64,000 nt of DNA, taken from Actinomadura chibensis NBRC 106107 (GTDB taxonomy: Bacteria; Actinomycetota; Actinomycetes; Streptosporangiales; Streptosporangiaceae). The translations under genes and the position numbers were made by a program. The notes under the pieces are model-generated. The model did no database searches. It saw nothing but the letters and a program-made list of their open reading frames with translations, and was not told the origin of the DNA. This document shows, one piece after another, positions 7,270 to 23,771 of this stretch (position 1 is the stretch's first letter; every line of letters begins with the position of its first letter). The stretch spans positions 1 through 64,000 of the forward strand of contig NZ_BCQP01000045.1 of the NCBI RefSeq assembly GCF_001552135.1, in the 5' to 3' direction.

Positions 7270-10200
7270 TCACAGCGGCGTCGGGGCGATGTCGCAGTCG
7301 AGCAGCCGCCCGTCCCCGGCGGCCAGCACGTCCGGATGGTCCGCGCCGAGGGCCTCCGCCAGCGCGCGGACCGGCTCCCCGCCGCCGCGGTCCAGGCCGA
7401 GCGCGGCGCGGATCACCTGGTGGTTGTGGGCGGACGCCAGCGTGTAGACGTGGCCGGGCCCGTACCGCTCCCGGAACCGCTCCAGCGTCTCGTTGGACCG
7501 GATGCGGGCCGCCTCCAGCCGCCCCATGCGGAACAGGTCGTTGGCCAGGCCGACCGAGCAGCACAGCGCGAAGTAGTGGTCGGCGCCGAGGCTCTCGCGC
7601 AGCGCGTGCGCGGACGTGTCGTCGAGGACCCGCGCCGCGTCGTGGTCGCCCGACTCGCGCAGCGCCGTCGCGAGGTCCGCCGCGCAGGCGTGCGTGAACG
7701 GGTGGTCCATGCCGAGGACGTCGCGGTGCCCGGCGAGGGCCGTCTTCCCGAGCCGGTGGGCGCCGCGCGCGTCGCCCGTCGCGAGGTGGGCCTGGACGAG
7801 CACCCGCCGCGCGGCGAGCGTGTCCGGGTGGTCGTCGCCGTAGCGCTGCCGGTGCAGCCGCAGCGTGTCCTCCGCGAGGGCCCGCGCCGCCGCGTGCGCG
7901 CCGAGCTTGCGCAGCGCGACCGCGTGGCTCATCTCGGTGTGCAGGACGAACGCGTGGTCGGCCGCGAGCGTCTCCCGCATGATCGTCAGCGCCTCCCGCT
8001 GGAGCGCGGCCGCCGCGCCGTAGTCGCCGAGCCCGTGCAGGTCGCGCGACAGCTGGCTCATCGCGAGCAGGGTGTTGCGGTGCCGCGGCCCGAGGCTCGC
8101 CCGCAGCTGGCCGAGGGAGTCGGCGTCGATCCGCCGCGCCTCCTCGAACTCGCCGAGCAGCCGCAGGTCGATGCCGACGTTGTTGGCGACGCGGAGCGTC
8201 TCGACGTGCCCGGTCCCGAACAGCCGGCCCATCCGGCGCAGCGTGTCCTGGTCGAGGTCGAGCGCCTGCCGGAACGCCCCGCGCAGCCGCCGGTCGGCGG
8301 CCACGTTGCGGGCGGCGCGCATCGTCGCCGAGTGGCCGGGGCCGAACCGCTCGGTCGTCCGCCGGTGGATGTCGGCGTTCAGCGCGTTCGCGGCGGCGAG
8401 GTCGCCGAGGGCGCGCAGCACGGTGCCGAGCTCGCGGCCCGCGATCAGCACCGACTCGCCGTAGGGGCCGAGCTCGGGCCGCCAGCGGGCGAGCGCGGTC
8501 TCGGCGAGCGCGCGGCTGCCCTCGAAGTCGCCGCGCAGGTACAGGTAGCGCATCTGGTCCAGCGCCACCCTCCGGACCTCGGCGGACGCGCCGCCGATCA
8601 CCCCGGCGGGCAGCACGTGCGGGGCGATCTCGGCGCGGATCCCCCAGGTGGTCTCGTCGTCCGGGGGCGTGCGCGGGGTGGCGGCGGCGAGGATCCGGTG
8701 CACCCGGTCCTGGACGGCGGCGCGCTCGTCCTCGGTGAGCCTGTCCTGCAGCATCGCCCGGACGAGCCGGTGGACCTGGAGGCTGCACGTCCCCGCGTCG
8801 TACCGGCCGAGGGCGTAGCGGTTGATGTCGGACATGGCGCGGCGGAGCCGGCCGGTGTCGGCGAGCGTCGCGCGCAGCCCGCGGGGGAGCCCGTCGGCGG
8901 CGCCCGCCGACAGCAGGCCGCGCGCCACCGGCTCGGGGCCGAAGAACGCCCAGAGCTCCAGGAGGCGCCCGGCGGCGGGGGAGTCCTCCAGGAGGCGTTC
9001 GAAGGCGAGGCCGAGCGTGGCGGCCAGCTCCGCCGGGTAGCCGGGCGGCGGGGCCGTCCCCGGCGCCTGCCGCAGCCTGTGGTTCAGGAGCCGCAGGTAC
9101 TCCCGGCTCGGCCGGCCCGTGACGGCCTGCCACGCCGCCGCCTGCTCGACCGCGAGCGGCAGGTCGCCGACCCGCCCGGCGAGCCGGTCCGCGTCGGCGG
9201 GGGCGAGGCCGGGCACGCGGCGGCGCAGCAGCGCGACGCTCTCGGCGCGCTCGAAGACGCCGACGCCGGCGGCGGCGGTGCGCTCGGCCCACCGGCGGTC
9301 CCTGGAGGTGACCAGCACGTGCCCGCCGGGGACGGCCGTCGTCAGCGGCCCGTCCGCGTCACGCCGCACCGGCATCAGCGGGACGATCTCGTCCGGGTCG
9401 GCGGCGTTGTCGTAGATGAGCAGCCAGCGGCGGTGCCGCCGGCCGGCGCGCAGGGCGTCCAGGAGCCGCTCGACGGTGCGGTTCACGTCGTCGCTGAGCG
9501 GCGTGCCGAGCCGCCGGGCGAGGTCGGCGAGCGACGACCTGGCCAGCGTGATCTGCTCGGCGGGGACCCACCACACGAGGTCGTAGTCGGCCGCGTGGCG
9601 GTGCGCGTACTCGACGGCGAGCTGCGACTTGCCCTGCCCGCCGAGCCGCCGCGGGTCGGCGGGCAGGAGGGACGTCACGGCGGTGGAGACTTTCGTCCCG
9701 ATGTCGCGGAGCAGGGTGTCGCGGCCGGTGAAGTGGGGGTTGCGCGGCGGCAGGCCGCCGCCGAGCAGCGGGGCGGGGCCCTCGCGGGTGTCGCGGGTGT
9801 CTTCGTCGTCCGGCTCGTCCCGGGTCGCGCCCTCGCTCCCGGACGGCGGCGGCCCCGGCGGCGCCGGGTCCCGCGCCGCCTCGGCCAGCCGCTCGGCGAG
9901 CCGCGCGTACCGGCCGCCGAGCCGGGCGAGGACGCGCGCCGCGACCTGCGCGAACGGCGGGTCCTGGCGGAGGTCCTCGGCGCCCTCCCCGACGGCCCGC
10001 AGCAGCGCGGGGAAGTCCTGCGACGAGCCCCACCGGCCCCGGACGACGTCCCACACGCTCCGCAGGACGCCGAGCGCCTCGGCCCTGCCGAGCCCGCTGA
10101 GCAGGACGTCGCGCACCCCGTCGTGGAACTCGTACTCGACGCCGTCCGGGTCGGTCCCCGGGCGGGCGCGGCGCATCAGGCCGCCGAGGAACACCTCGGC

Positions 10201-11427
10201 CAGGTGCGCCGAGGTCGACTCCGGCAGCGTCGCCTGCTGGACGAGCGACATCACCTCCAGCCGCAGCGGCGCCGCCGCGAGGTAGCGCGCGAGCCGGAAC
10301 GCCGTCGGCGAGGACGCGGCGCGGAACCGCTTGACCCGCTCGTCGGCGGGCCGGTCGCCGTCCTCGTCCATCTCGCCGTGGACGTCCCGGATCGGCGGCG
10401 CGTCCGTGAACACGGCGACGGCGGCGGTCGGGCCCGTCCCGGCGCCGACCAGCTCCGCCCACGGGCGCAGCCAGCGGGGCTCCAGCTCCATCACCGGGAT
10501 CGCGACGCCGGGCGGGACGCCGAGCCCGCCGCGCGGCCGGACGGTCAGCCGGCGGTTCGGCTGCCCCGGCCGGTCGGCGCTGATCCAGACGGGCTCCGCC
10601 GGCGCCGCGCACCGCCACCACAGCCGCTGCGGGAGCGGCTGGAGGATCGCCACCGGGGCCGTCCGCGCCCACCGCTTGAGGACGGCGGCGGCGCGCCCGT
10701 CGCCCCAGGCCCGCCCGATGCAGTCGCTGAAGACGAGGACGACGCGGCGGCGGGTCGGGTCGATCAGCTCGTCCGGGCTGCGTCCCGGCCCGGACGACGC
10801 CTCCCCGGTGCGCAGCACGAGCGTCTCGTCGTCGGTGTCCAGCCGCCACACCCGGACGTCGCGGAACGCGCCGAGCCGCTCCATCAGCGTGCGCAGCTCG
10901 GCGGCGAGCCGCGTCCAGACGACCATGGACGAGCCGCCGTCGACGACGAGCGCGAGGTCGAGCCACCGCTCCGGCGCGGGCTCCATGAACGGTTCCCAGA
11001 TGCCCGTCTCCGCGACGCGCTGCGCCGTCGCGCCCTCGACGAGGCGCCGCACCGTCGGGGACGAGGACCGGACGCGCAGCGGGCGCAGCGCCCGGGCGAG
11101 GCTCAGCGCGCGCGGGATCGCGGGCGCCGCCGGGGCGCGGACCGGGTCGCCCGGCGCCCGCGCCGTCCCCGCGACGTGCAGCCTGGCCTGCGGCGACGCC
11201 ACCGGACCCGGCCGCCGCCGCGGCGCGGCGAGGTCGGCGTCCGGCGGCTCGACGACCGCGGGCGGCCGCACGTCGTGGGCCGGTTCGGGGCCGGGCGGCG
11301 CGGGCGGCCGCGCGGCGGCGGGCTCCGCCGCGGGCGCGAACCGCGCGAGCCAGAGCGCGTCGGCGATCTCCTCGGCGGTGGGCTGCGGATCGAGCGCGCG
11401 CAGCGCCTCGATCAGCCGGCCGATCAT
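7270..11427 (-). CDS. SAV_2336-type N-terminus / vWA-like / NB-ARC / TPR protein (FxsT-like)
   Basis: A 1385-residue signalling protein. The N-terminus (MIGRLIEALRALDPQPTAEEIADALWLARF) matches SAV_2336-type proteins. A vWA-like domain follows with DLALVVDGGSSMVVW, whose MIDAS is degenerate (Gly for the first Ser). Near the middle an STAND/NB-ARC NTPase has Walker A RRLGGQGKSQLAVEYA, Walker B RRWLLIYDNA, a GGHVLVTSRDRRW sensor and GDLPLAVEQAA. The rest is about a dozen TPR-like repeats. It ends LDCDIAPTPL, nearly the same tail as the second FxsT-type protein of the locus. Its ATG overlaps the MoxR stop as ATGA. FxsT proteins accompany FxSxx-COOH peptides, but this one belongs physically to the MoxR/VMAP group. 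Confidence 0.85.
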   Translation of the reverse strand: MIGRLIEALRALDPQPTAEEIADALWLARFAPAAEPAAARPPAPPGPEPAHDVRPPAVVEPPDADLAAPRRRPGPVASPQARLHVAGTARAPGDPVRAPAAPAIPRALSLARALRPLRVRSSSPTVRRLVEGATAQRVAETGIWEPFMEPAPERWLDLALVVDGGSSMVVWTRLAAELRTLMERLGAFRDVRVWRLDTDDETLVLRTGEASSGPGRSPDELIDPTRRRVVLVFSDCIGRAWGDGRAAAVLKRWARTAPVAILQPLPQRLWWRCAAPAEPVWISADRPGQPNRRLTVRPRGGLGVPPGVAIPVMELEPRWLRPWAELVGAGTGPTAAVAVFTDAPPIRDVHGEMDEDGDRPADERVKRFRAASSPTAFRLARYLAAAPLRLEVMSLVQQATLPESTSAHLAEVFLGGLMRRARPGTDPDGVEYEFHDGVRDVLLSGLGRAEALGVLRSVWDVVRGRWGSSQDFPALLRAVGEGAEDLRQDPPFAQVAARVLARLGGRYARLAERLAEAARDPAPPGPPPSGSEGATRDEPDDEDTRDTREGPAPLLGGGLPPRNPHFTGRDTLLRDIGTKVSTAVTSLLPADPRRLGGQGKSQLAVEYAHRHAADYDLVWWVPAEQITLARSSLADLARRLGTPLSDDVNRTVERLLDALRAGRRHRRWLLIYDNAADPDEIVPLMPVRRDADGPLTTAVPGGHVLVTSRDRRWAERTAAAGVGVFERAESVALLRRRVPGLAPADADRLAGRVGDLPLAVEQAAAWQAVTGRPSREYLRLLNHRLRQAPGTAPPPGYPAELAATLGLAFERLLEDSPAAGRLLELWAFFGPEPVARGLLSAGAADGLPRGLRATLADTGRLRRAMSDINRYALGRYDAGTCSLQVHRLVRAMLQDRLTEDERAAVQDRVHRILAAATPRTPPDDETTWGIRAEIAPHVLPAGVIGGASAEVRRVALDQMRYLYLRGDFEGSRALAETALARWRPELGPYGESVLIAGRELGTVLRALGDLAAANALNADIHRRTTERFGPGHSATMRAARNVAADRRLRGAFRQALDLDQDTLRRMGRLFGTGHVETLRVANNVGIDLRLLGEFEEARRIDADSLGQLRASLGPRHRNTLLAMSQLSRDLHGLGDYGAAAALQREALTIMRETLAADHAFVLHTEMSHAVALRKLGAHAAARALAEDTLRLHRQRYGDDHPDTLAARRVLVQAHLATGDARGAHRLGKTALAGHRDVLGMDHPFTHACAADLATALRESGDHDAARVLDDTSAHALRESLGADHYFALCCSVGLANDLFRMGRLEAARIRSNETLERFRERYGPGHVYTLASAHNHQVIRAALGLDRGGGEPVRALAEALGADHPDVLAAGDGRLLDCDIAPTPL

Positions 11428-12449
11428 CCCGGTCCGGGCGCGCCCAGCGAGCGCATGATCGCGGCCACCAGCTCCCGCAGCGTCGCCTCGGACGGCCGGG
11501 ATCCAGTCGTGCACAGGTAGACCGCGTTGAGCAGCTGGTCGGTGGCGAGGTCGCCGCGCTCGCGCCGGTCCAGGAACTCCCGGACGAGGCCCGCGCTCGC
11601 GGTCCGCGCGGCCTCGCCGAGATGGGCCTCGACGATGGCGGCGAGCTGCTCCGGGCTCGGCGGCTCGATCACCAGCCGGACGCAGCGCCGCAGGAACGCC
11701 GGGGGGAACTCCCGCTCGCCGTTGCTCGTGATCACGACGAGCGGGAACGCGTCGCACTGGACCCGGCCCCGCTCGACCGGCACGCGGTCGGGGCCCTTGG
11801 CGGGCATGACGTGCACGACCGGCTGGTCCTCCGGGAGGCGTTCCAGCTCCGGGATCGTGTAGCCGCCCTCCTCGAAGACGTTCAGGAGGTCGTTCGGTAG
11901 GTCGATGTCGCTCTTGTCCAACTCGTCGATGAGCAGCACTCGGGGGCGCGGGCCCGGCAGCAGCGCCGTGCCGAGCGGGCCGAGCCGGATGTAGCGCCCG
12001 ATGTCGGGCGCCTCGGTGGCGGCGCCGGGCGCGGCGGCCCGGCGCAGGCTCGTCTCGTGCAGCCGTCCGATCGCGTCGTAGCGGTACAGGCCGTCCTGGA
12101 GCGTCGCGCGGCTGGTGATCGGCCAGTCGAGGACGGTCCCGAGCCCGAGCTCGTGGGCGACGTTGTAGGCGAGCGTGGACTTGCCCGTCCCCGGCTTGCC
12201 GGTGACGAGCAGCGGACGCCGCAGGTGCAGCGCGACGTTCACCATCTTCACGACGTTCGGGTCCGGACGGTACGACAGCGCCCGCTCCAGGCCGTCCCGG
12301 TGCGGCCGCGCGCCGTTCGCGGTGTCGAAGCGCCGCCAGGGCGGCGGCTCGGGCAGCCGGTCGAGGCCGTCGTGGGTGGTGCCGTCCCCGCGGTAGATCA
12401 GCCACTCCGCGTTCGACCGGTCGGCGGTGACCGGGTCCGTGTCCGCCAC
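11424..12449 (-). CDS. MoxR-family AAA+ ATPase
   Basis: A 341-residue AAA+ ATPase: Walker A VTGKPGTGKSTLAYNVA, Walker B VLLIDELDKSDIDLPNDLL, a sensor asparagine in VVITSNGEREFPPAFLRRC and arginine fingers near LRRCVRLV. MoxR ATPases act as chaperones with vWA partners; here the partner is probably the vWA-like region of the next gene, which starts on this gene's stop. The start is set at a GTG (residues VADTDPV) because GGAGG lies five bases upstream; a longer reading would run into the upstream gene. Gap to the VMAP gene is 20 bp, so the two are co-transcribed. Confidence 0.9.
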   Translation of the reverse strand: MADTDPVTADRSNAEWLIYRGDGTTHDGLDRLPEPPPWRRFDTANGARPHRDGLERALSYRPDPNVVKMVNVALHLRRPLLVTGKPGTGKSTLAYNVAHELGLGTVLDWPITSRATLQDGLYRYDAIGRLHETSLRRAAAPGAATEAPDIGRYIRLGPLGTALLPGPRPRVLLIDELDKSDIDLPNDLLNVFEEGGYTIPELERLPEDQPVVHVMPAKGPDRVPVERGRVQCDAFPLVVITSNGEREFPPAFLRRCVRLVIEPPSPEQLAAIVEAHLGEAARTASAGLVREFLDRRERGDLATDQLLNAVYLCTTGSRPSEATLRELVAAIMRSLGAPGPG

Positions 12450-12469
12450 GGAGACCTCCAAAGGGCGGC

Positions 12470-13942
12470 TCAGGCCGGCGCGTTCAGCCGGACGTAGGGT
12501 TCGGGCAGCCGGTCGGCGTCGTCGAAGAGCAGCGTCAGGTCGAGGCCGAGGTGGTCCCCGTCCGGCGCGCCGTCGAGCGCGCGCAGCGCCTCCCGCCGCA
12601 GGGACAGGACGCTCTCCGGCAGTGTCAGCGCCCCGGTGTCCAGCAGCTCCTGGAACTCGTGCGCGAAGCGCTCCGGGTCGCGTCCGCGCCTGCACCAGGC
12701 CACGATCGGGACGCCCGCCTGGAGCGCGGCGCGCAGCTCGGCGGAGGCGTCGCCGCCGTCCGGACCCGGCGGGAACGCCATCGCGAGGCATACCGAGGGC
12801 GTCTCCGCGAGAAGCATGCTGTAGAGACTCTCACCGCCGTACCGGCCGGGCTGTGTCACCCAGCACACCTTGGCGCTGTACGGGTTGTCGCGCAGCCAGT
12901 GCCATTTCCGGAGCCAGTGGTGGTGGGAGGACCGCCTGCGCATCCGGTCGAGGCTGCGGACGACCACCGGGTGCTCGATGCCGAGGCGCCGCTCCAGGCC
13001 GTCGACCGAGATCCGCAACTGGTCGAAGGGCGTCCCGAGCAGGTCGCCGGGCAGCACGAATTCCAGCGTCATGTCCGGCGTGGGCCGGTTGACGACCTGG
13101 GGGTTCTCGCTCAGCAGCTCCTTGACGAGGGCGGGCAGCCCGTCGACCGGGACGGGGTCGCCGTCGTCGCAGTGGAGCATCAGCCCGTGCTCGCCCTCGA
13201 CCTGGAACCACGCGGAGGCGAGGTACCGGTCGGCGGCCGGCCCGTCCGGGCGCAGCTCGATGACCAGGTAGCTGGGTGGCGCGGCGGCGCGTGGCGGGGC
13301 CGCGGCGATGCTCCGGCGCACGCCGAGCCGGTGCGCCCTGCCGTCCGCCCAGCCCCGCAGGTCGGCGGCGAGGCGGCCGGTCGCGTACGCGGCGAGTCCG
13401 TCGACGAAGGCCAGCAGCGGCGGGACGCCGTCGCCGCCGAGGGTGAGGTCCTCCAGCCTGGCGAGGACGCCGCGCAGATCGCCGGGGTCGACGTCCAGCG
13501 CGGGACCGGACGGGCCGGCGACCTCCCAGTAGAGCGCCCGGACCGTGGCGGGCGCGACGGCCTCGGCGGCGTGGTCGCGAAGGGCCCGGACGAGGAGGTC
13601 CAGCTCGCGCCGTTCCCGGGGCAGCAGCAGCGGCTCGGGCAGCAGCTCGTCGACCAGGCGGCGGAACTCCTCCAGCGGCGTGCTGCCGCCGTGGAGGTGC
13701 TCGACGACGGTCATCAGCGCGTGGAAGGCGCCGGTGTGGGAGAGGCAGGAGTCGACGAGATGCCAGATCTCGTTGATGTCCTTGTCGTCCCGGGTCAGGG
13801 GGAGCGGGTGGCCGAGCTCCCGTTCCAGCAGCAGAAGGCACAGATCACGGGAACCGCGTTTGCGCAGCGCGTCCATTCTCCACAGGGCCTGTACCAGGCG
13901 GGACTGATCCTCCAACGTCAGCGACCAGGTCACGTTCGACAT
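12470..13942 (-). CDS. EAD2 + VMAP-C protein (vWA-MoxR-associated protein)
   Basis: A 490-residue protein. The first 95 residues match an effector-associated domain of the EAD2 type (R.LVQALWRMDALRKRGSRD ... DINEIWHLVDSCLSHTGAFHALMTVV). After a linker, residues about 225-490 fit the VMAP-C domain that accompanies MoxR and vWA proteins in ternary NTP-dependent conflict systems. The cyclase three genes downstream has the same kind of EAD, so the two probably contact each other by homotypic EAD pairing. The VMAP-C active residues cannot be assigned by eye. The ATG has only a weak purine-rich leader (GAAGTGGGTGA). Confidence 0.75.
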   Translation of the reverse strand: MSNVTWSLTLEDQSRLVQALWRMDALRKRGSRDLCLLLLERELGHPLPLTRDDKDINEIWHLVDSCLSHTGAFHALMTVVEHLHGGSTPLEEFRRLVDELLPEPLLLPRERRELDLLVRALRDHAAEAVAPATVRALYWEVAGPSGPALDVDPGDLRGVLARLEDLTLGGDGVPPLLAFVDGLAAYATGRLAADLRGWADGRAHRLGVRRSIAAAPPRAAAPPSYLVIELRPDGPAADRYLASAWFQVEGEHGLMLHCDDGDPVPVDGLPALVKELLSENPQVVNRPTPDMTLEFVLPGDLLGTPFDQLRISVDGLERRLGIEHPVVVRSLDRMRRRSSHHHWLRKWHWLRDNPYSAKVCWVTQPGRYGGESLYSMLLAETPSVCLAMAFPPGPDGGDASAELRAALQAGVPIVAWCRRGRDPERFAHEFQELLDTGALTLPESVLSLRREALRALDGAPDGDHLGLDLTLLFDDADRLPEPYVRLNAPA

Positions 13943-14054: not shown

Positions 14055-15392
14055 TTAGGCCGGGTCTAAATTGCGTTCGCGATCCGTGCTGGATTGCGGT
14101 ACCGGCGCCCCGGCATGGTGCGACGAATCATGTTTAATGCGGTCGGATCCGCGACGTTTCCGTATCCGGAGCCCGCATGAGCTGACCACGGCGACGGCCA
14201 GGGTGACCGCCATGACGATGCCGGTGACGATTCTGGTGTTCGACACGAGCGACAGGAGATATCCGGCGGACAGCGAGCCGAGCGGCACCGCCCCCTGGCT
14301 CACGAGGCTGTTGACGCTCGTGACCCGCGCCAGGTTCCCGTTGGGCACCCAGGTCGCCTGGTAGATGGTCAGAGCCACGTTCATGTGCGCGCCGATGAAG
14401 CTGATCCCGGCCCAGGCGGCCAACCCCGTCAGCGGGTCGTCGCCGGCCGCCACGACCGCGGTCATGCCGACCCAGCCCCAGACGCAGAAGAGCAGGACGC
14501 GCATCTCCCGTCCACTCTCGGCCAGCCTGCAGTACCGGAAGAGCCACCGCGCGACGACGGCGCCGAGCGTCCCGCCGAATCCGGACGCGGCGAACAGGAC
14601 GCCGATCATCGCGGTCGAGTCGAATTCGTGGTCGGCCTGGACGATGAGCATCAGGAAAATGGTCTGAAAGGCGAAGTTGGTCACCGCGGTGATGATGAGC
14701 ACCATCCAGAGAAACGGATGCTTGGCCAGAAGTGCGACGCACTCCCGGAAGCCGGATAACTCTCGATCGGTGCGCCCCTCCGCCCGGAACCCCGCGTGCT
14801 GCATGCAATGCAGGGTGAATGCGGAGAACAGCGATGAGGCGGCGTCCGCGACGAAGGGCAGGGCGCGGTTGACGCCGTACAGGAAACCGCCGAGCGGCCG
14901 CCCGAGAAGCATCGCGATATGGCTGCGCGCCTCGTTTCTCGCCATCGCCTCGGGAAGCGCCTCGGCCGGGACGATGCGGGGGACGACGGTGACCTCGGTC
15001 AGGTTGTACAGGGCGGCGAGCGCCCCTTCCGCGGCCGCCGCGGCGACCAGCAGGTGGCCGGGATGGAAGTCGAGGAGGAGCCCGACGGCCAGCATCGCCG
15101 AGATCGTGAAGCGGGTGTACTGGCAGGTCAGCATGATCCGGCGGCGGTTGAAGCGATCCGCCACCATCCCGGCGGGCAGGTAGAGCAGCAGCCGCGGCCC
15201 GTTGGCGACGGCGGCGACCCAGCCGGCGAAGGCCGGGGAGTGGGTGAGCGACAGCGCCAGCAGCGGAAGCGCGATGGCCGCGTTCATGCTCCCGAGTTGG
15301 GAGGCTGCCGATCCGTTCCACAGATAGGCGAAATCGCGCGGCAATGCCGCCCGTGATTTCACGCGGACCTGCACGTCGTCCGGGGCGGCCAC
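14055..15392 (-). CDS. MFS transporter, candidate RiPP exporter
   Basis: A 445-residue major facilitator protein with 12 likely helices; the loop 2-3 motif is GMVADRFNRRRIM. The sequence style (DFAYLWNGSAASQLGS at the start) is that of MFS_3/enterobactin-exporter-like drug and peptide efflux proteins. It lies downstream of the FxsA-like precursor on the same strand and upstream of the VMAP gene, so it could export the modified peptide or protect from it. GTG start with GGAGGG eight bases upstream. Confidence 0.8.
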   Translation of the reverse strand: MAAPDDVQVRVKSRAALPRDFAYLWNGSAASQLGSMNAAIALPLLALSLTHSPAFAGWVAAVANGPRLLLYLPAGMVADRFNRRRIMLTCQYTRFTISAMLAVGLLLDFHPGHLLVAAAAAEGALAALYNLTEVTVVPRIVPAEALPEAMARNEARSHIAMLLGRPLGGFLYGVNRALPFVADAASSLFSAFTLHCMQHAGFRAEGRTDRELSGFRECVALLAKHPFLWMVLIITAVTNFAFQTIFLMLIVQADHEFDSTAMIGVLFAASGFGGTLGAVVARWLFRYCRLAESGREMRVLLFCVWGWVGMTAVVAAGDDPLTGLAAWAGISFIGAHMNVALTIYQATWVPNGNLARVTSVNSLVSQGAVPLGSLSAGYLLSLVSNTRIVTGIVMAVTLAVAVVSSCGLRIRKRRGSDRIKHDSSHHAGAPVPQSSTDRERNLDPA

Positions 15393-15711: not shown

Positions 15712-15900
15712 TCAGCGATCGGACGGCGGCGGGGCGGCGACGCTGTCGAAGCCGCAGACGGCCGACTCGCCCGGCGCGGCGAGGATCTCGCGGAGCGTCT
15801 GCTCGAAGACGGACCCGCCGATCTCGTCGCCCAGCTGGCGGAGGGAGAGCCCGGACACGTCGATCAGGGCGCCCTGGAACGTGGTCTCCTGCTGCTGCAT
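15712..15900 (-). CDS. fxsA: FxsA-like precursor peptide (FxSxx cyclophane RiPP), with extended C-terminus
   Basis: A 62-residue peptide. The leader (LIDVSGLSLRQLGDEIGGS ... LREILAAPGESAV) closely follows the FxsA family that is the substrate of FxsB radical SAM enzymes. The usual core is Phe-x-Ser-x-x at the very C-terminus; here GFDSVA is followed by APPPSDR, so seven residues extend past FDSVA. FxsB enzymes join an aromatic side chain to the beta-carbon of the residue two places on, so the predicted crosslink is Phe-Ser in FDS. ATG preceded by GAGGAG five bases upstream. Divergent from the FxsT-type gene and 4-5 kb from its maturase. Confidence 0.85.
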   Translation of the reverse strand: MQQQETTFQGALIDVSGLSLRQLGDEIGGSVFEQTLREILAAPGESAVCGFDSVAAPPPSDR

Positions 15901-15980: not shown

Positions 15981-16235
15981 TCCAGCGGAGAAATTCCTAG
16001 CCCGGTGGCGGTTCTTCCGCCCGCACCGATGATCCATGGGCGAATCGCGTTGCGGCGCTGACGAAACGCCGTGGAGTGTGGACCGAAATTCGGATGGCAG
16101 GAAAACCCGGCTGTTCGCGAATTTGTGGCGGGTGACCCATTTCGCCGCCGCCGTGACTGGGATATTACGGTAACCGGACGTGAATGACGGCCTGTCGGCC
16201 CGACGGTGATTCGGCGAAGTGCGGAGGTGGGACGC
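15981..16235. other. Remainder of the 335-bp divergent fxsA/fxsT intergenic region
   Basis: No gene seen. TATTAC (16163-16168) could be the -10 of the fxsT gene but no good -35 lies at the right distance. CGGTAACCG (about 16168-16176) is a 9-base palindrome close to it. Confidence 0.3.
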
Positions 16236-18737
16236 ATGGCGCACCCGCAGGCGGTTCCGGCGGTGTGGGGGAAGGTGCCGCTGCGGAACAAGAACTTCAC
16301 CGGGCGCGAGGAGTTGCTGACCGAGCTCAAGACCGCCATCTCCCGGCAGGTCACCGCCGTGCTGCCGCACGCGCTGCACGGCCTCGGCGGGGTGGGCAAG
16401 ACCCAGATGGCGGTGGAGTTCGCGTACCGCTACCAGGTCGATTACGACATCGTGTGGTGGGTTCCGGCCGACCAGCCGAAACTCGTCCTGCCGATGCTCG
16501 CGAACCTGGCGCCGCACCTCGGGCTGCCCTCGTCCGCGATCCTGGGCGTCGAGGACGCCGCCAACGCGGTGCTCGACGCGCTGCGCCGGGGCGACCCGTA
16601 CGGTCGTTGGCTCGTGATATTCGACAACGCGGACGAACCGGAGGATCTCCAGGGCCTGCTGCCGCAGGGCGGCCACGTCCTCATCACCTCGCGCAACCCG
16701 CGGTGGGACAGTGTCGGCCACACCGTCCAGGTGGACGTCTTCACCCGCGAGGAGAGCATCGCCTTCCTCGACAAGCGCGTCCCGCGCACGATCAACGAGG
16801 GGGACGCCGACCGCCTCGCGCACGAGTTGGGCGACCTGCCGCTCGCGCTCGAACAGGCGGGCGCCCTCCAGGCCGAGACCGGCATCTCCGCCGCGGAGTA
16901 CCTGCGGCTGCTCGCGGAGTACACCCGGCGGCTGCTGGCGGAGGGGAGGCCCACCGAGTATCCGGCCTCGATGACGGCGGCGTGGCGGCTGTCGGTGGAC
17001 AGCCTCCGCGAGAAGCTCCCCGAGGCCGTCGAGCTGCTGCGCTGCTGCGCCTTCTTCGGTCCCGAGCCGATCCCGCGCGAGGTCTTCAGCCGCACTCCGC
17101 CCGGCATGAGCCAGCCGCTGGCCGGGCTGCTGCGCAACCCGATCAAGCTCGCCCGGGCGTTCGGCGAGGTGGGCCGCTACGCGCTGGCCAAGATCGACTC
17201 GGCGAGCCGGACCGTCCAGGTGCACCGGCTGATCCAGGCCCTGCTGCGGGACGAGCTGTCCCCCGCCGATCAGGCGCGGTTCCGCGGCGAGGTGCACATG
17301 CTCCTCGTGGCGGCGATGCCGCCCGATGACGTGGACTCCCCGACGAGCTGGCGCCGCTACGCGGAACTGACCCAGCACGTCGAGCCCGCCGCCGTCGCCC
17401 AGAGCCAGGACCCGGACGTCCGCAAGTTCGCCCTCAGCATCGTCCGGTACCTGCGGCAGTCGGGTGACTTCGCGTTCGCGCAGACCCTGGTCGAACGCCT
17501 CCTCGACCAGTGGGCGGCCGACTCCGGGGAGGACGACCTCGACCTCCTCGGAGGCAAGCGGCATTTCGGCATCATCCTGCGCGACCGGGGTGAGTACGGC
17601 GCCGCCTACGAGTCGAACCTGAAGGCCATGGAGCGGACGGAGACGCTGGTCGGCCCGAGCCACCCCATGACGCTGCAGCTCCTGAACTCGCTCGGCGCCG
17701 ACCTGCGGGCTCGCGGCGACTTCTCGGACGCCCGCGATCACGACCTCCGCTCGGTGGAGCGCCACGAGGAGGTGTTCGGCCCCACCGCGGTCGACACGCT
17801 GCGGGCGATGCACAACCTGGCGCTGGACCACAGCCTGAACAGCGACCACGCCAAGTCGCGGGACCTGCACGAGACCGTCTACCTGCGCTACACCACGTCC
17901 GCGAACGCGTCCATGACCAACGTCAACAGCGCGCTCGGCGGGCTGGCGCGGTCGGTGCGCCTGTGCGGCGACTTCGCGGAGGCGTGCGATCTCGGCGAAG
18001 AGGCGTACGCCAAGTGCGTGGACGAGGTGGGCCCCGAGCACCCGCTGACGCTCCACGTGGCGAAGGACCTCACCATCGCCCTGCGCCGGTCCGGGGAGCT
18101 CGCCCGGGCGCTGGAGCTGGCCAAGGAGAACCACGCCCGCTACGTCCGGCTGTTCGGGCTCGACCACCCGGACACGCTCGCGTCCGCGATGTCCCTCGCC
18201 AACTGCCGGCGCAGCCTCGGCGACCTGGACTCGGCGCTGGAGCTCACCGCCGACACCGTCGTCCGGTACCCGAAGGTCTACGGCCCGGAGCACCCCTACA
18301 GCCACGGCTGCGCCGGGAACCTCGCGGTGCTGCGCCGGGTGCTCGGGGACGCCGAGTCCGCGCGGCGGGTGAACGAGAAGGCGCTCGCCGGGCTGGAGGT
18401 CAAGCTCGGGCGCGACCACCACTACTCGCTCAGCGTGGCCACCAACCTGGCGAGCGACCTGCTGGCGCTGGAGGAGACCGACTCGGCGAGCCGGCTCGGG
18501 CGCGGGACGCTGCGCCGGCTGCGGGCGACGGTCGGCGAGGAGCACCCGCTGACCATGGCCTGCGCCGCCAACCTGGCGGTGGCCCTGCGCGCGAACGGCG
18601 AGGAGGACGAGGCCGCCCGGCAGCACAAGGAGGTCATGGACGTCTACGCGCGAAGGCTCGGCCTGGAGCACCCGGACGCCGTCGTCGCGGCCGAGTGGCG
18701 GAGCCTCGACTGCGACTTCGACCCGCCGCCCATCTAG
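16236..18737 (+). CDS. fxsT: FxSxx-COOH system NB-ARC/TPR protein (FxsT)
   Basis: An 833-residue STAND-type protein. NB-ARC motifs: Walker A LHGLGGVGKTQMAVEFA, Walker B RWLVIFDNAD, GGHVLITSRNPRW and GDLPLALEQAGA. The C-terminal half is a string of TPR repeats with the recurring phrase GP.HP.TL. It ends LDCDFDPPPI. These features match the tetratricopeptide protein that accompanies FxsA and FxsB. The ATG at 16236 is preferred over a GTG 30 bp upstream because GGAGG sits eight bases before it. Its role in peptide maturation, sensing or delivery is not established. Confidence 0.9.
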   Translation: MAHPQAVPAVWGKVPLRNKNFTGREELLTELKTAISRQVTAVLPHALHGLGGVGKTQMAVEFAYRYQVDYDIVWWVPADQPKLVLPMLANLAPHLGLPSSAILGVEDAANAVLDALRRGDPYGRWLVIFDNADEPEDLQGLLPQGGHVLITSRNPRWDSVGHTVQVDVFTREESIAFLDKRVPRTINEGDADRLAHELGDLPLALEQAGALQAETGISAAEYLRLLAEYTRRLLAEGRPTEYPASMTAAWRLSVDSLREKLPEAVELLRCCAFFGPEPIPREVFSRTPPGMSQPLAGLLRNPIKLARAFGEVGRYALAKIDSASRTVQVHRLIQALLRDELSPADQARFRGEVHMLLVAAMPPDDVDSPTSWRRYAELTQHVEPAAVAQSQDPDVRKFALSIVRYLRQSGDFAFAQTLVERLLDQWAADSGEDDLDLLGGKRHFGIILRDRGEYGAAYESNLKAMERTETLVGPSHPMTLQLLNSLGADLRARGDFSDARDHDLRSVERHEEVFGPTAVDTLRAMHNLALDHSLNSDHAKSRDLHETVYLRYTTSANASMTNVNSALGGLARSVRLCGDFAEACDLGEEAYAKCVDEVGPEHPLTLHVAKDLTIALRRSGELARALELAKENHARYVRLFGLDHPDTLASAMSLANCRRSLGDLDSALELTADTVVRYPKVYGPEHPYSHGCAGNLAVLRRVLGDAESARRVNEKALAGLEVKLGRDHHYSLSVATNLASDLLALEETDSASRLGRGTLRRLRATVGEEHPLTMACAANLAVALRANGEEDEAARQHKEVMDVYARRLGLEHPDAVVAAEWRSLDCDFDPPPI

Positions 18738-20041
18738 CCCCGGTCGCCGGACCCGCCGTTGCGCCGCCGCCAGGCGGCCAGGTGCCGGGCGGCGATGTCG
18801 CGGGCCCGGCGGAGCGCCTCGTCCGGCACCGGCTCGTCCAGCCAGGCCCGGACGGTGCGGCCCATCTCGTCGACGAACAGGGCGCCCTCGGGGGTGAGCC
18901 GCCCGCTGCCGGCGAGGGTGCGGATCACGTACTCGGTGGCCGCCCGCCAGCGCGCGAAGTCGCCGCCCGCGCGCAGCGCCGCCGCGCCCTCCTCGTGCCG
19001 GCGCTGCGTGCGCCAGAACGCCGCGATCGCGAGGTGGGCGTAGGCGCCCTGCAGCAGGCCGGCGGTCGGCCTCGGGTCCTCCCGCCAGGGAGCGTAGTAG
19101 GTGCTGCCGTCGTCGGGCCGGGTCAGCCGGACGAGGTCCAGCAGCGCGGCCAGCTTGGCGTGCTGGACCTCGTGGACGAGCGTGACCGCGAAGTGGGCGG
19201 CGTCGGGCGGGCTGGACAGCGCGACGCTGCCGAAGACGTCCCGCGAGCTGGCGCTGGACATGCCCCGCGCGGGCGGGGCGAGGGGCGTCAGCACGGTGAT
19301 GAGCGCGGCGACCTCCTCGGCCGCCGGACGGTGGTGGTCGACCAGGATCCGCCAGGCGTCGGCGAGGGTCGACCGCCAGGACTCGAGCTCGTCCGCGGGG
19401 AGGCGGTGGGGGAGCCGCTCGCCGCCGGGCATGCGGTCGGGGTCGTGGTCGTCGAGGAGGAAGGCGACGGCCGCGCCCCGGTGCGAGGCGGTCAGGCGGC
19501 GCAGCGCCTCCCAGCCCGGCGCGTCCTCGTGGACGTCGGCGGGCAGCCGGGTCCGGACGTCCCCGGCGGTGATCTCCGCGCCGCCGGGGCCCGTCCGGAC
19601 GAGCGCGCTCGCGCGGCCGGGCACCGGCGCGCGGCCGAGGCCGGGCAGGACGACGGAGCCGGAACGCGCCGGGACCTCGATCTCGGCGCGGAACCCGGCC
19701 CTGACCGCGGCCGCGGCGGCGAGCGCGGCGTACTCGCCGGGGCGGGCGGCGCCGGGTTCGGCCAGGGTGCGCCGCGCCCATTCGCCGACCGTCGGGTACC
19801 GCAGGACGGCGTCGACGGCCCGGGGGTCGGCGTCCTGGATCCGCGCGAGCAGGCCGTGGGCGCGGACCGCCGCCGGGCCCGCCGCGCCCAGCACGCCGCG
19901 CAGCAGCAGGAGGCGCTTGCTGTACTGCGACCTGAGCAGCAGGTCCGCCGCGGACGCGCCGCCGCCTCCCGCGGCGAGCGCGAGGAGGGTCTTCTCCGGG
20001 ACCTCGTGGACGCCGGGGACGCCGGGGCTGCCGGGATTCAT
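18734..20041 (-). CDS. HExxH-type peptide beta-hydroxylase of the FxsB locus
   Basis: A 435-residue protein with the motif TLVHEVQHAKLAALLDL near residue 280, the signature of the HExxH putative peptide-modification family now annotated as alpha-ketoglutarate-dependent peptide beta-hydroxylases next to FxsB maturases. The rest is helical, with no signal peptide. Its ATG overlaps the FxsB stop as ATGA, so the two are made together, and its stop overlaps the stop of the convergent fxsT gene. It probably hydroxylates the cyclophane peptide, but the residue is unknown. Confidence 0.85.
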   Translation of the reverse strand: MNPGSPGVPGVHEVPEKTLLALAAGGGGASAADLLLRSQYSKRLLLLRGVLGAAGPAAVRAHGLLARIQDADPRAVDAVLRYPTVGEWARRTLAEPGAARPGEYAALAAAAAVRAGFRAEIEVPARSGSVVLPGLGRAPVPGRASALVRTGPGGAEITAGDVRTRLPADVHEDAPGWEALRRLTASHRGAAVAFLLDDHDPDRMPGGERLPHRLPADELESWRSTLADAWRILVDHHRPAAEEVAALITVLTPLAPPARGMSSASSRDVFGSVALSSPPDAAHFAVTLVHEVQHAKLAALLDLVRLTRPDDGSTYYAPWREDPRPTAGLLQGAYAHLAIAAFWRTQRRHEEGAAALRAGGDFARWRAATEYVIRTLAGSGRLTPEGALFVDEMGRTVRAWLDEPVPDEALRRARDIAARHLAAWRRRNGGSGDRG

Positions 20042-21285
20042 GCACCCCGCTCCTCGGCGGACGCCGTGTGCGTGAGCGCGGCCACGTCCTCGGCGACCGC
20101 GTCCCGGATGTGGGTGACGAGGCGGAACAGGTCATTGCAGTACACAGAGGCGTTGGCGAACCCTGCCCCGGACCGGTACCGGTGCGTGTAGAGCCCGCCC
20201 CCGCACACCCGGTGGACGGGGCAGGCCGTGCACGTCGGGGCGAGCGCGCGGCGGCCGATCTGGCGGGCGGCCATCGCGGGCAGCATGAGCGCGGCGTCGA
20301 ACGGGTCGCGGCCGACGTGCAGGGCCGTCTGGGTCGCCCCCTCGTAGGCCGACTTCAGCGTGTCGACCTGCTCGATGGCGCCGTTCGTCTCCACGACGGC
20401 GACGCCGACCGGCGAGAGCCCGATCCCCTCGCTGTGCGACGGCCGGCCGAGCAGTAATCGGATGATCTCGGTGAACAGCCGGACCCGGGTCTCCCGGACG
20501 GGCGCCCGGTACCAGCGGTCGAACACCGCGACCAGCCAGTCGCCGTAGGGTGTCCCGGAGCCGGTGCCGAGGCCGGGCGGGGGAGTGTCCCAGTTTCCGT
20601 GCGGGAGCAGGAAGTCGACGATCCGGGGACGGTGCGCGAGCAGCGCCTCGTAGGTGCCGACCGGGTCGTTGTCCAGGTCGATCGCGCTGAGCAGCCCGGT
20701 GAAGAGGTGGCGGTACGCGGGCGCCGTCAGCCGTCGCAGCCCGGCCATGACCTCCCGGTGACTTCCGGCTCCGTTGGCGCGGCGGCGGTGCCGGTCGTGG
20801 CCCTCCTCGTCGCCGTCCAGGCTGACGCTCACCAAAATGCCGAGTTCGTCGAAGAGTTTCAGGTAGACCGAATCGAGGAGCACCCCATTGGTCTGGACAT
20901 GGAAAGTCGCCGAAGTCGAAGAATCCAGCGCCGAATTGACCGCCTCGACCGCGTACCTGAGGTGTTCGGGCCCGGCGAGCAACGGTTCTCCGCCGTGCAG
21001 GATCACGGTGATCCGGGGCAGGGCGTTGGACCGCGCGTGCTCGGCGATCCGGGCGGCGACGTGGTCGATCGTGGCCCGTGACATGCGCCGCGGCTGGCGC
21101 CGCCAGCTCTGGTCGGCCATCTCGTACATGTAGCAGTAGGAGCACGCGAGATTGCACCTGCTGTGTATTTTCAGCACGAACTCGCGGAACGGGGTGGGCC
21201 GCCAGCCCTGTTCGAGCAGCTCCTGCACGCTGAGCGTGGCCGGCCATTCGCCGGCGGTGGACGCCGGTGCCGCACTCACGGTCAC
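20038..21285 (-). CDS. fxsB: FxsB radical SAM/SPASM cyclophane-forming maturase
   Basis: A 415-residue radical SAM enzyme. The SAM-cluster motif CNLACSYCYMYE (Cx3Cx2C) lies near the start, LHGGEPLL and a conserved VSLDG strand follow, and the C-terminal SPASM cysteines are in CTACPVHRVCGGG and YCNDLF. FxsB enzymes form a three-residue cyclophane on FxsA precursors. The GTG start at 21285 is chosen because GGGAG lies nine bases upstream; an ATG at 21333 would add 16 residues but has no ribosome site. Downstream overlap with the HExxH gene links the two modifications. Confidence 0.9.
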   Translation of the reverse strand: MTVSAAPASTAGEWPATLSVQELLEQGWRPTPFREFVLKIHSRCNLACSYCYMYEMADQSWRRQPRRMSRATIDHVAARIAEHARSNALPRITVILHGGEPLLAGPEHLRYAVEAVNSALDSSTSATFHVQTNGVLLDSVYLKLFDELGILVSVSLDGDEEGHDRHRRRANGAGSHREVMAGLRRLTAPAYRHLFTGLLSAIDLDNDPVGTYEALLAHRPRIVDFLLPHGNWDTPPPGLGTGSGTPYGDWLVAVFDRWYRAPVRETRVRLFTEIIRLLLGRPSHSEGIGLSPVGVAVVETNGAIEQVDTLKSAYEGATQTALHVGRDPFDAALMLPAMAARQIGRRALAPTCTACPVHRVCGGGLYTHRYRSGAGFANASVYCNDLFRLVTHIRDAVAEDVAALTHTASAEERGA

Positions 21286-21411
21286 ACCGATCAACTCCCA
21301 GGTCGAGTTCCGGCACGGCAGAGTACGCCCCATTACATTTATATACACATCTTCGTGATCAGTGAATAGCGCGGGCGGCGCGGTTTTCGGCGGGCGGCGT
21401 ACGCTCTTCGG

Positions 21412-22209
21412 GTGCGCACCATCATCGCCGCTTATGAGCAGACGGTCCGGTCCAGCCTGGAGCTTGCCTCGACGTTGGACGGGCCCGACTGGGACCTCCC
21501 GACCGAATGCCCCGGCTGGACGGTCAAGGACCAGTTCTCCCACCTCGCCGGGGTCGAGCTGGCCCTGCTGGGCGACCCCGCCCCGGACGTCGAGGTGCCG
21601 GAGTTCGAGCACGTCCGCAACGACTTCGGCAAGTTCATGGAGGTCGCCGTCCACGCGCGGCGGCCGGTGCCGGGCCCGGAGGTCGCGGCGCAGCTCGCGG
21701 ACGCGCTGGAGCGCCGCCTCGCCGAGCTGCCCGGTCTGGACCCGGAGCGCGTCGTCATGTGCCCGGACGGTCGCGAGGGCTCCTACACCCGCTTCATGAA
21801 GTTCCGCGCCATGGACTGCTGGACGCACGAGCAGGACGTCCGCCGCGCGGTCGGCCGTCCGGGCAACCTCGACGCCCCGGCGGCGCGGTGCTTCTGGGAG
21901 CTGATGAGCGCGGGCCTGCCGCGCGTCGTGGCGCGGAAGGCGGGCGCGGAGCCGGGCCGGTCGGTCGCGTTCCGGATCTCCGGCCCGCCCTCCTTCCACG
22001 TGGCCGTCCGGGTGGACGACGACCGCCGGGGCCACCTCGCCGAGGCCGCGGGCGCCGGAGCCGACCCGGCGGCCGAGCTGTCCATGGACTGGGAGGGCTA
22101 CGTCCGGCTGACCGCCGGGCGGTGCGCGCCGGGCGCCGTCGCGGTGGGCATCGACGGCGACCGTGAGCTGGCCTCGCGGGTGCTGGCCGCCATGGCGATG
22201 ACGCCCTAG
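21412..22209 (+). CDS. Maleylpyruvate isomerase family mycothiol-dependent protein (DinB-like)
   Basis: A 265-residue protein with the DinB/MDMPI N-terminal four-helix domain: CPGWTVKDQFSHLAG carries the metal-binding His and MDCWTHEQDVRRAVG the second His motif. A C-terminal SCP-like domain follows (FRISGPPSFHVAV ... MDWEGYVRLTAGR). Such proteins use mycothiol as thiol cofactor in actinobacteria. GTG start. It shares its stop region with the convergent NTF2-like gene. Substrate unknown. Confidence 0.8.
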   Translation: MRTIIAAYEQTVRSSLELASTLDGPDWDLPTECPGWTVKDQFSHLAGVELALLGDPAPDVEVPEFEHVRNDFGKFMEVAVHARRPVPGPEVAAQLADALERRLAELPGLDPERVVMCPDGREGSYTRFMKFRAMDCWTHEQDVRRAVGRPGNLDAPAARCFWELMSAGLPRVVARKAGAEPGRSVAFRISGPPSFHVAVRVDDDRRGHLAEAAGAGADPAAELSMDWEGYVRLTAGRCAPGAVAVGIDGDRELASRVLAAMAMTP

Positions 22210-22721
22210 CCGTCCTCCGGCGCGGGACGGTGCCGGACGGCCCCCGGGAAGTGCCCGGCGAGCAGGTCGGGCGACTCCTGGCGGCCGTCCAGGACGCGGC
22301 TCGTCCGGTTCACCACCCGCCACCCGAACGGGGTGCGGCGCAGCCGCCAGCGGTTCGCGGTGGCGCGGCGGACGAAGAAGCCGTCCGGCCCGTGCACGAT
22401 CATCAGGGTGTAGCCGGTCGCGGTCGCCTCGTCGCCGGACACGACGACGTGCGGCGGCCCGGCGAAGTGCGCGCACCCCCCGGCGATGAAGCCCTGGTGG
22501 CCCTCGGAGCGCACCATCGCCTCGACCTCCGCGCGGCCGGACATCAGCAGCTCGTCCACGTCGTAGACGCCGTCCTCGGCCCACAGCGCGGCGACGTCGG
22601 CGGCGCAGCCGCTGTCGACCAGCGGGGCGTAGGACAGGATCAGCCGGGTGACGGCGCGCTCGTCCTCCAGGAGGCGGAGCCGCGCCTCAAGCGCGTTCAG
22701 CCGAGTCTCGACGTCGGTCAT
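22206..22721 (-). CDS. NTF2/SnoaL-like protein
   Basis: A 171-residue protein with a coiled N-terminus and the SnoaL-like pattern SYAPLVDSGCAADVAALWAEDGVYDVDE, typical of polyketide-cyclase/steroid-isomerase-fold proteins and of small subunits of ring-hydroxylating systems. Starts by ATGA overlap with the upstream LLM oxidoreductase, so they form a two-gene operon. The fold would suit isomerisation of a steroid-like or aromatic compound but the catalytic residues are not certain. Confidence 0.75.
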   Translation of the reverse strand: MTDVETRLNALEARLRLLEDERAVTRLILSYAPLVDSGCAADVAALWAEDGVYDVDELLMSGRAEVEAMVRSEGHQGFIAGGCAHFAGPPHVVVSGDEATATGYTLMIVHGPDGFFVRRATANRWRLRRTPFGWRVVNRTSRVLDGRQESPDLLAGHFPGAVRHRPAPEDG

Positions 22722-23593
22722 CGCACCTCCCCGAAGGTCAGCTCGAAGGGGCCCGCCAGCTCGCGCAGCGCGGCGAGCTGGTCGCGGTAGTGGTCGGGCG
22801 AGGTGGACGCGAACCGGGCGCCCGCGATCGTCGCGCCCGCGTCGCGCAGTTCCGCGAGGGCGGCGCCGGCGGCGTCCGGGTCGCCGATCGGGTCGAGCGG
22901 GCGGGGCGTCCCGAGGACCACGTCGAACCCGGCCGGGACGTCGGCGTCCGCGAGCATCGCGGCGAGCGTGCCGAGCGGCAGCCCGAACGGGACCCAGCCG
23001 TCGGCGTCCAGCGCGCGGCGCAGCGACCGGGCCGTCCGGCCGCCGATCCAGATCGGGACGCGCTCCTGCACGGCGTGCGGCTCGACGACCAGCCCGGCGA
23101 AGTCGTAGTACTCGCCGTGGTACTCCGGCAGCCGCTTCGACAGGGACGCGCGGAGCGCGGCGATCGCGTCGTCCGCGCGGGCGCCGCGGTCCGCGAACGG
23201 GGCGCCGAGCAGCGCGAACTCCTCCTGGAGGCTGCCGACGCCGAGGCCGAGCGTGAGGCGCCCGCCGCTGACCCGGTCGAGCGTCCCGTACCGCTTGGCG
23301 ATCGCGAGCGGATGGTGGTACCCGACGACCAGGACGTGCGTGGCGAGCCGGATCCGGGACGTCCGCGCCGCGATGTGCCCGAACGTGGCGAGCGGGTCCC
23401 AGTAGACCCCGCCGCGCCGCTCGGCCGCCTCGACCGGGACGGCGACGTGCTCGCTGCAGCTCAGATGGTGGTAGCCGAGCCGGTCGGCGGTCTCGGCGAT
23501 CCGGGCGATGTCCTCGATGCCCGCGTCCAGCTCCCAGGCGGCGGGCCCGGGCGGCGGCTGCGCCACCACCGGTGTGACGATGCCGACACGCAT
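22718..23593 (-). CDS. LLM-class flavin (F420)-dependent oxidoreductase
   Basis: A 291-residue TIM-barrel oxidoreductase with the luciferase-like signatures ETADRLGYHHLSCSEHVAVP, GRLTLGLGVGSLQEEF and VPIWIGGRTARSLRRA. The length and style fit the F420-dependent TIGR03619-like group. The start at MRVGIVTP is supported by GAGGGGAG five bases upstream. It lies beside the divergent iclR gene, so it may be part of the same regulated block. Confidence 0.85.
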   Translation of the reverse strand: MRVGIVTPVVAQPPPGPAAWELDAGIEDIARIAETADRLGYHHLSCSEHVAVPVEAAERRGGVYWDPLATFGHIAARTSRIRLATHVLVVGYHHPLAIAKRYGTLDRVSGGRLTLGLGVGSLQEEFALLGAPFADRGARADDAIAALRASLSKRLPEYHGEYYDFAGLVVEPHAVQERVPIWIGGRTARSLRRALDADGWVPFGLPLGTLAAMLADADVPAGFDVVLGTPRPLDPIGDPDAAGAALAELRDAGATIAGARFASTSPDHYRDQLAALRELAGPFELTFGEVR

Positions 23594-23771
23594 CGTTGCT
23601 CCCCTCGTCGCAGGAAAACGTTCTATCACGGTGTTTCACTCGCGACACGAGCCGGGGTCGGCCCGGGAAGCTCGGTCTGACCTCGCTTTACGCCGCCCCT
23701 TCCCAGAAGACCAAGCGGTTGCTAGATTCCAGATAACCAGAATTCATTTCAGTTGTTCTCTGGGAGGTGCG

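What the first reader, a model, noticed from the sequence alone, without database searches (positions are those of the whole stretch)
15712..15900. FxsA variant whose FxS motif is not C-terminal
The peptide ends GFDSVAAPPPSDR. Standard FxsA proteins stop two residues after Ser; here seven residues (APPPSDR) follow FDSVA. Either the maturase accepts an internal core, or a protease trims the Pro-rich tail. Cys before GFDS is also unusual.
Basis: partly seen in the sequence, partly recalled or inferred. Interest (0 to 1): 0.7.

Follow-up and report, generated by a model that had tools for sequence, protein, structure and literature searches.

The report
Cyclophane peptide precursor with C-terminal tail
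A small bacterial peptide gene really does carry extra residues after its crosslinking motif, but about half of its sampled relatives with the same motif do too, so it is an ordinary member of a tail-bearing branch of a known peptide family.

Summary
The ORF at 15712-15900 (-) encodes 62 residues ending GFDSVAAPPPSDR, so seven residues follow FxSxx. It sits in a full Fxs cluster of an Actinomadura: FxsB radical SAM, aKG-HExxH protein and FxsT, with MFS-VMAP-MoxR-vWA genes downstream. The reading that an internal motif is exceptional does not hold. Among 84 distinct FxS-type relatives sampled, 41 end exactly at FxSxx, 41 have a tail (35 of three or more residues) and 2 are one residue short. 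In the 17-row FxsB clade holding the window, 16 paired precursors are tailed. Tails look coded: they are far shorter than read-through would give (median 6 against 40 residues), and in 3 of 12 compared pairs the tail is conserved up to the stop and similarity drops after it. Most likely FxsB reads the leader and an F-x-S site that need not be terminal. Later removal of the tail is unknown; tails occur in 7 of 9 FxsB rows without a detected HExxH gene, which argues against HExxH as general tail remover. Cys two before Phe is rare (1 of 141).

The parts
15712..15900 (-). FxsA-type precursor, 62 aa plus stop
   Evidence: TIGR04268 22.9 bits; RBS-like GAGGAGA upstream
15736..15750 (-). F51-D52-S53-V54-A55, the FxSxx motif (presumed Phe-Ser cyclophane site)
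   Evidence: F and S invariant in the 22-row alignment A2, whose rows were chosen to end at FxSxx; crosslink inferred from published relatives
15715..15735 (-). C-terminal tail APPPSDR
   Evidence: tails in relatives:
15754..15756 (-). Cys49 where 127 of 141 distinct peptides have Ala
20038..21291 (-). FxsB radical SAM/SPASM maturase (start codon uncertain)
   Evidence: TIGR04269 457 bits, cut-off 370; ChlB radical SAM domain 9gm3 4.6e-78
18734..20041 (-). aKG-HExxH-type peptide hydroxylase
   Evidence: TIGR04267 171 bits, cut-off 40; 22nu 2.7e-49 and ChlH 8s5f 1.3e-7, HExxH and PWRED-RP blocks aligned
16206..18737 (+). FxsT: NB-ARC plus TPR protein of the FxSxx system (start uncertain)
   Evidence: NF040586 1001 bits; NB-ARC and TPR
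14055..15392 (-). MFS transporter directly downstream of FxsA; candidate exporter (inference)
   Evidence: MFS_1, MFS_3; same position in L043, L044, L048, L050, L052
12470..13942 (-). EAD2 - VMAP-M0 - VMAP-C protein
11424..12450 (-). MoxR-like AAA ATPase (start uncertain)
   Evidence: AAA_5 and weak bpMoxR
7270..11420 (-). SAV_2336-type vWA region fused to a second NB-ARC-TPR (FxsT2); start uncertain; the vWA label follows the cited VMAP paper
   Evidence: NF041121 448 bits and NF040586 848 bits

Best explanation
A real FxsA-type RiPP precursor of a VMAP-linked Fxs system in Actinomadura. Inferred: FxsB binds the leader (LIDVSGLSLRQL region) and makes a three-residue Phe51-Ser53 cyclophane; the aKG-HExxH enzyme may then beta-hydroxylate a nearby residue (Asp52 is the obvious candidate). 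Supported by comparison: FxsB of this branch does not need FxSxx at the carboxy terminus, because short tails after the motif are the norm in its clade. The tail is a short coded follower whose length and sequence differ between clades; tails as a class are rich in Asp, Glu and Pro (this one is mainly Pro/Ala). I think it probably persists through the FxsB step; later removal is possible but unshown. The product presumably works with the NB-ARC-TPR proteins and the VMAP ternary module (inference from gene linkage).
For: ORF and motif; full neighbourhood; tails in 41 of 84 distinct FxS relatives and in 16 of 17 rows of the window's FxsB clade (SH-aLRT 95*); tail state needs at least 18 changes on the FxsB tree against 24-39 in 200 shuffles, so it follows lineage; tails of one or more residues have median 6 against a read-through median of 40, p 5.5e-12, and tails of three or more hold 23% D+E against 10% in control translations; pairs L080/L088, L053/L175 and L175/L178 keep the tail to the stop and diverge after it; catalytic motifs present. 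Paper passages seen: Phe-Ser crosslink by MscB (PMC11002830); HExxH hydroxylation of Asp/His on a preinstalled cyclophane (PMC12636437).
Against: No chemistry measured here. The window's own tail is not conserved with its nearest relative L043, where it differs with indels, so constraint on this particular tail is not shown; 9 of the 12 pairs compared do not show a tail-specific constraint, and in L070/L073, L100/L116, L082/L094 and L072/L110 the DNA after the stop is also fairly well conserved. The read-through test treats related genes as independent. L044, in the same small clade, has only one extra residue and L111 none. Outside the window's family, the 15 distinct FxS peptides from the class-level search are mostly tail-free or nearly so: 10 with no extra residue, 4 with one, 1 with sixteen, though they are top matches of the FxSxx-COOH model.
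Confidence: 0.75

Rival explanations
1. The tail is a follower that is removed after crosslinking, by a housekeeping protease or by the HExxH enzyme acting oxidatively, giving a product that ends near FxSxx.
For: The related aKG-HEXXH enzymes PflC and PosC cut the backbone and remove a C-terminal ARMD peptide, with Ala at the cut critical (PMC12636437 passages); this tail starts with Ala. About half of the FxS relatives end exactly at FxSxx, suggesting that such an end is functional (41 of 84).
Against: Tails occur in 7 of 9 FxsB rows with no detected HExxH gene, while 38 of the 40 rows without a tail (any third residue) have one. No dedicated protease appears among the neighbouring genes scanned with Pfam. 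I saw no common cut motif in the listed tails (by eye).
Confidence: 0.35
2. The tail is a neutral accident: the stop codon was lost and the ORF reads into intergenic DNA.
For: The window and L043 tails differ by indels and hardly align; tail lengths vary between relatives.
Against: Tails are much shorter than in-frame continuation behind tailless genes (median 6 against 40), and are richer in D/E and poorer in Arg than control translations; in 3 of 12 pairs they are conserved to the stop with divergence after it.
Confidence: 0.15
3. Sequencing or assembly error near the stop of an ordinary FxSxx-COOH gene.
For: Score just under the curated cut-off.
Against: No alternative frame gives an early stop; the nearest relative L043 also has a tail, as does nearly all of the clade.
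Confidence: 0.02

Closest known systems
FxSxx-COOH cyclophane-containing RiPP peptide (NCBIfam TIGR04268, FxsA)
   Same: Leader block, F-x-S, and FxsB/HExxH/FxsT neighbours. Tailed relatives already score in this model: 23 of 35 tailed and 17 of 31 tailless relatives reach E 2e-6, about the cut-off.
   Different: FxS not at the carboxy terminus; this peptide is below the cut-off (22.9 against 28 bits); Cys at -2.
Triceptides made by three-residue cyclophane-forming enzymes (MscB, ChlB)
   Same: MscB is reported to link Phe C4 to Ser Cbeta (PMC11002830 passages); that MscB's InterPro family is the FxsB family is recalled, not from a call. Sequence match of this FxsB to the ChlB radical SAM domain.
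   Different: Crosslink not tested here; which residues this FxsB joins is inferred.
ChlH aKG-HExxH beta-hydroxylase
   Same: HExxH and PWRED-RP blocks align; TIGR04267 over cut-off.
   Different: Only 1.3e-7 to ChlH; closer to 22nu (2.7e-49), whose molecule name is only 'Radical SAM core domain-containing protein'; substrate residue unknown.
VMAP-ternary systems with peptide-processing genes (Burroughs et al. 2020, PMC7159879; passages, section 24 read)
   Same: VMAP-C/EAD2, MoxR-like, vWA-type, NB-ARC-TPR and FxSxx-type peptide genes together.
   Different: That paper says FxSxx-type systems have vWA fused to TPRs only and a separate TIR-bearing AP-ATPase; here the vWA-type protein is fused to NB-ARC-TPR and a separate NB-ARC-TPR gene also exists, with no TIR domain in its Pfam table. 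The paper also reads the HExxH protein as a peptidase.

Membership tests
TIGR04268 FxSxx-COOH (FxsA) | Score over the curated cut-off (28 bits) | tested here: not met
   22.9 bits, E 7.2e-5; not found at E 0.001 in the own-genome search
TIGR04268 FxSxx-COOH (FxsA) | FxSxx ends the protein (from the family name) | tested here: not met
   Seven residues follow; but also not met by 41 of 84 distinct FxS relatives with a tail and 2 that are one residue short
TIGR04268 FxSxx-COOH (FxsA) | Conserved leader block and F-x-S | tested here: met
TIGR04268 FxSxx-COOH (FxsA) | Neighbouring FxsB, HExxH and FxsT | tested here: met
FxsB TIGR04269 | Score over cut-off and radical SAM CxxxCxxC | tested here: met
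   457 bits against 370; CNLACSYC
aKG-HExxH hydroxylase TIGR04267 | Score over cut-off, HExxH present | tested here: met
   171 bits against 40; HEVQH
Triceptides | Three-residue C-C crosslink in the product | not testable with these tools
   needs mass spectrometry and NMR

The most novel reading that the evidence does not exclude
The tails are selected, clade-specific followers that give each FxsA its partner specificity, for example matching a peptide to its own NB-ARC-TPR (FxsT) protein: in their fetched regions L048, L052, L075 and L077 carry two FxsA-type genes with different tails and two FxsT-type genes but one FxsB, so the tail and not the maturase would separate the two signals.
Probability: 0.08. 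Interest if true: 0.6.

Novelty: new variant of a known kind. Interest (0 to 1): 0.28.

Why it matters
It corrects a naming assumption: in this part of the actinobacteria the FxS site is about as often internal as terminal, so FxsB probably need not read the carboxylate, and genome mining that demands FxSxx-COOH would miss about half of the FxS-type precursors in this sample. It also gives a clean test of whether HExxH enzymes in these clusters hydroxylate only or also trim.

Tried and rejected
Ascertainment idea: I suspected that the curated model misses tailed peptides. It does not clearly do so: 23 of 35 tailed against 17 of 31 tailless members reach E 2e-6. For the tailless set I gave 31 of 41, leaving out ten class-level loci found with the same model; the tailed set (35 of the 41 with any tail, those of three or more residues) still holds one such locus (L128).

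VMAP linkage: 14 of 16 VMAP-linked FxS peptides have tails against 27 of 68 others, but on the FxsB tree the 12 independent pairs give no support (mean 0 the same way, 0.6 the other way), so I do not claim a link.

HExxH as tail remover: weakened by tails in 7 of 9 FxsB rows without a detected HExxH; independent pairs are uninformative (about one pair differs). Absence means no phmmer match at 1e-5 within the fetched region, not the whole genome.

Second FxsA next to FxsT2, as in L048 and L052: none in the window. A phylum-wide search with profile A2 matched only 4 of 396 genomes, the window's own among them, so the census is centred on the window's GTDB family. The class-level TIGR04268 search matched 112 of 394 genomes at E 0.01, 51 of 394 over the cut-off, and also rang in 2 of 14 control genomes below the cut-off, so weak matches there include chance; only its top loci entered the census. 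PHROGs: no match. PADLOC: weak AAA matches to the MoxR-like protein and viperin matches (3.7e-10) to FxsB, none to the other four proteins given. Papers: the rows listed by the searches include none whose title or abstract start describes tailed FxsA peptides; several of these lists were capped (10 of 1386, 15 of 60, 30 of 1692), and Phan and Morinaka 2022 is not held, so tails may be described there.

Sampling limits: the census peptides come from regions fetched by similarity to this genus plus top TIGR04268 and FxsB matches; identical peptides were counted once, and five of 146 distinct peptides without an aligned Phe were set aside before motif counts. The 80 fetched regions cover most but not all of the matches listed, a few, and the own-genome match.

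Full report
What is there. The minus-strand ORF 15712-15900 encodes 62 residues ending GFDSVAAPPPSDR, with a ribosome-binding-like GAGGAGA before the ATG. The curated FxSxx-COOH model aligns through the Ser (E 7.2e-5, 22.9 bits, cut-off 28). Neither other frame offers a stop within two codons of the Ser, so a single indel does not explain the tail.

Neighbourhood. FxsB (TIGR04269, 457 bits) and an aKG-HExxH protein (TIGR04267, 171 bits) lie at 20038-21291 and 18734-20041 (-), FxsT (NF040586, 1001 bits) at 16206-18737 (+). Downstream of FxsA on the same strand follow an MFS transporter, an EAD2/VMAP-C protein and a MoxR-like ATPase, and a SAV_2336-type (vWA) protein fused to a second NB-ARC-TPR. 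The same order recurs in L043, L044, L048, L050 and L052. FxsB matches the solved ChlB radical SAM domain (4.6e-78); the HExxH protein matches 22nu (2.7e-49) and ChlH (1.3e-7), with the HExxH and PWRED-RP blocks aligned.

Is the tail unusual? A nine-sequence profile from the genus matched 112 of 298 genomes of the family. I fetched 80 regions, added the loci of class-level TIGR04268 matches and 80 FxsB-based loci, and found 146 distinct FxsA-like peptides: third residue S in 84, N in 34, A in 17, Q in 6, no aligned Phe in 5. Of the 84 FxS peptides 41 end at FxSxx, 6 have one extra residue, 35 have three or more (3-19), and 2 are one short. The 15 distinct FxS peptides that came only from the class-level loci are mostly tail-free: 10 with none, 4 with one, 1 with sixteen extra residues; the other 69, mostly from the window's GTDB family, have 31 with none, 2 with one, 34 with three or more, 2 one short (counted from the rows). 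On a tree of 102 FxsB proteins the 17-row clade with the window (SH-aLRT 95*) has 16 of 17 precursors with a tail; tail state needs at least 18 changes against 24-39 in 200 label shuffles. The tail is thus a lineage feature that comes and goes, and the window's tail is normal for its branch.

Is the tail coded for a reason? Behind the 41 tailless genes the same frame would run a median of 40 residues (several past the 199-residue limit of the look), while the 41 observed tails have a median of 6 (Mann-Whitney p 5.5e-12; related genes are not independent). Tails of three or more hold 23% D+E against 10% in control translations, and 4.5% Arg against 14.5%. Of 12 pairs compared, L080/L088, L053/L175 and L175/L178 keep the tail and its length and lose similarity after the stop; L070/L073, L100/L116, L082/L094 and L072/L110 stay fairly similar beyond the stop and are uninformative or against; the window and L043, and L050/L044 and L048/L052, differ in the tail itself; L094/L120 and L059/L067 are unclear. 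So constraint on tails as a class is supported, on this particular tail not shown.

Mechanism. Published passages report a Phe C4 to Ser Cbeta crosslink by MscB (PMC11002830) and hydroxylation of Asp and His by an HExxH domain on a preinstalled cyclophane (PMC12636437). By analogy (inference) FxsB links F51 to S53 and HExxH may hydroxylate a nearby residue. PflC/PosC-type HEXXH enzymes can remove a C-terminal peptide oxidatively, which made HExxH a candidate tail remover. However, 7 of the 9 FxsB rows lacking a detected HExxH still have tails, while 38 of the 40 rows without a tail have the gene. I therefore favour tolerance of an internal site, with later trimming open.

The Cys. One of 141 distinct peptides with an aligned Phe has Cys two before it (this one); 127 have Ala. 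Six have Cys three before it. A chemical role is not indicated by anything seen here.

Burroughs et al. 2020 (PMC7159879; passages, section 24 read) describe these peptide-processing genes with VMAP systems and read the HExxH protein as a peptidase that releases a C-terminal peptide; the current NCBIfam name is aKG-HExxH-type peptide beta-hydroxylase. Their rule that FxSxx systems carry a separate TIR AP-ATPase and a vWA fused to TPRs only is not followed here.

Verdict. Observation confirmed; the claimed rarity of the tail is refuted; ordinary for its branch, with a modest correction to the family's name and a testable point on how FxsB picks its site.

Noticed in passing
6178-7170 (-): Protein with a weak GGDEF_2-like N-terminal match and a C-terminal EAD2 domain; the VMAP protein at 12470-13942 also carries EAD2, suggesting a partner recruited through EAD2.
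   Followed up: partly
7270-11420 (-) and 16206-18737 (+): Two FxsT-type NB-ARC-TPR regions, one fused to the vWA-type protein, with only one FxsA in the window; relatives L048, L052, L075 and L077 carry two FxsA-type genes for one FxsB.
   Followed up: partly
L063 (own genome C39:108085-108216): A second FxsA-like peptide of the same genome, over the curated cut-off (28.3 bits), ends YQRFDAAI without a tail (its Phe did not fall in the aligned column). No FxsB or HExxH match in its 18 kb region.
   Followed up: no
L066, L068, L105, L107, L167, L168, L190: A supported branch of the FxsB tree (Nonomuraea and Acrocarpospora) with no detected HExxH, whose peptides have F-D/E-N instead of FxS; 6 of 7 have a tail, 5 of 7 with Pro.
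   Followed up: partly
22718-23629 and 22206-22667 (-): Luciferase-like monooxygenase and SnoaL-like domain upstream of FxsB, apparently a separate unit.
   Followed up: no
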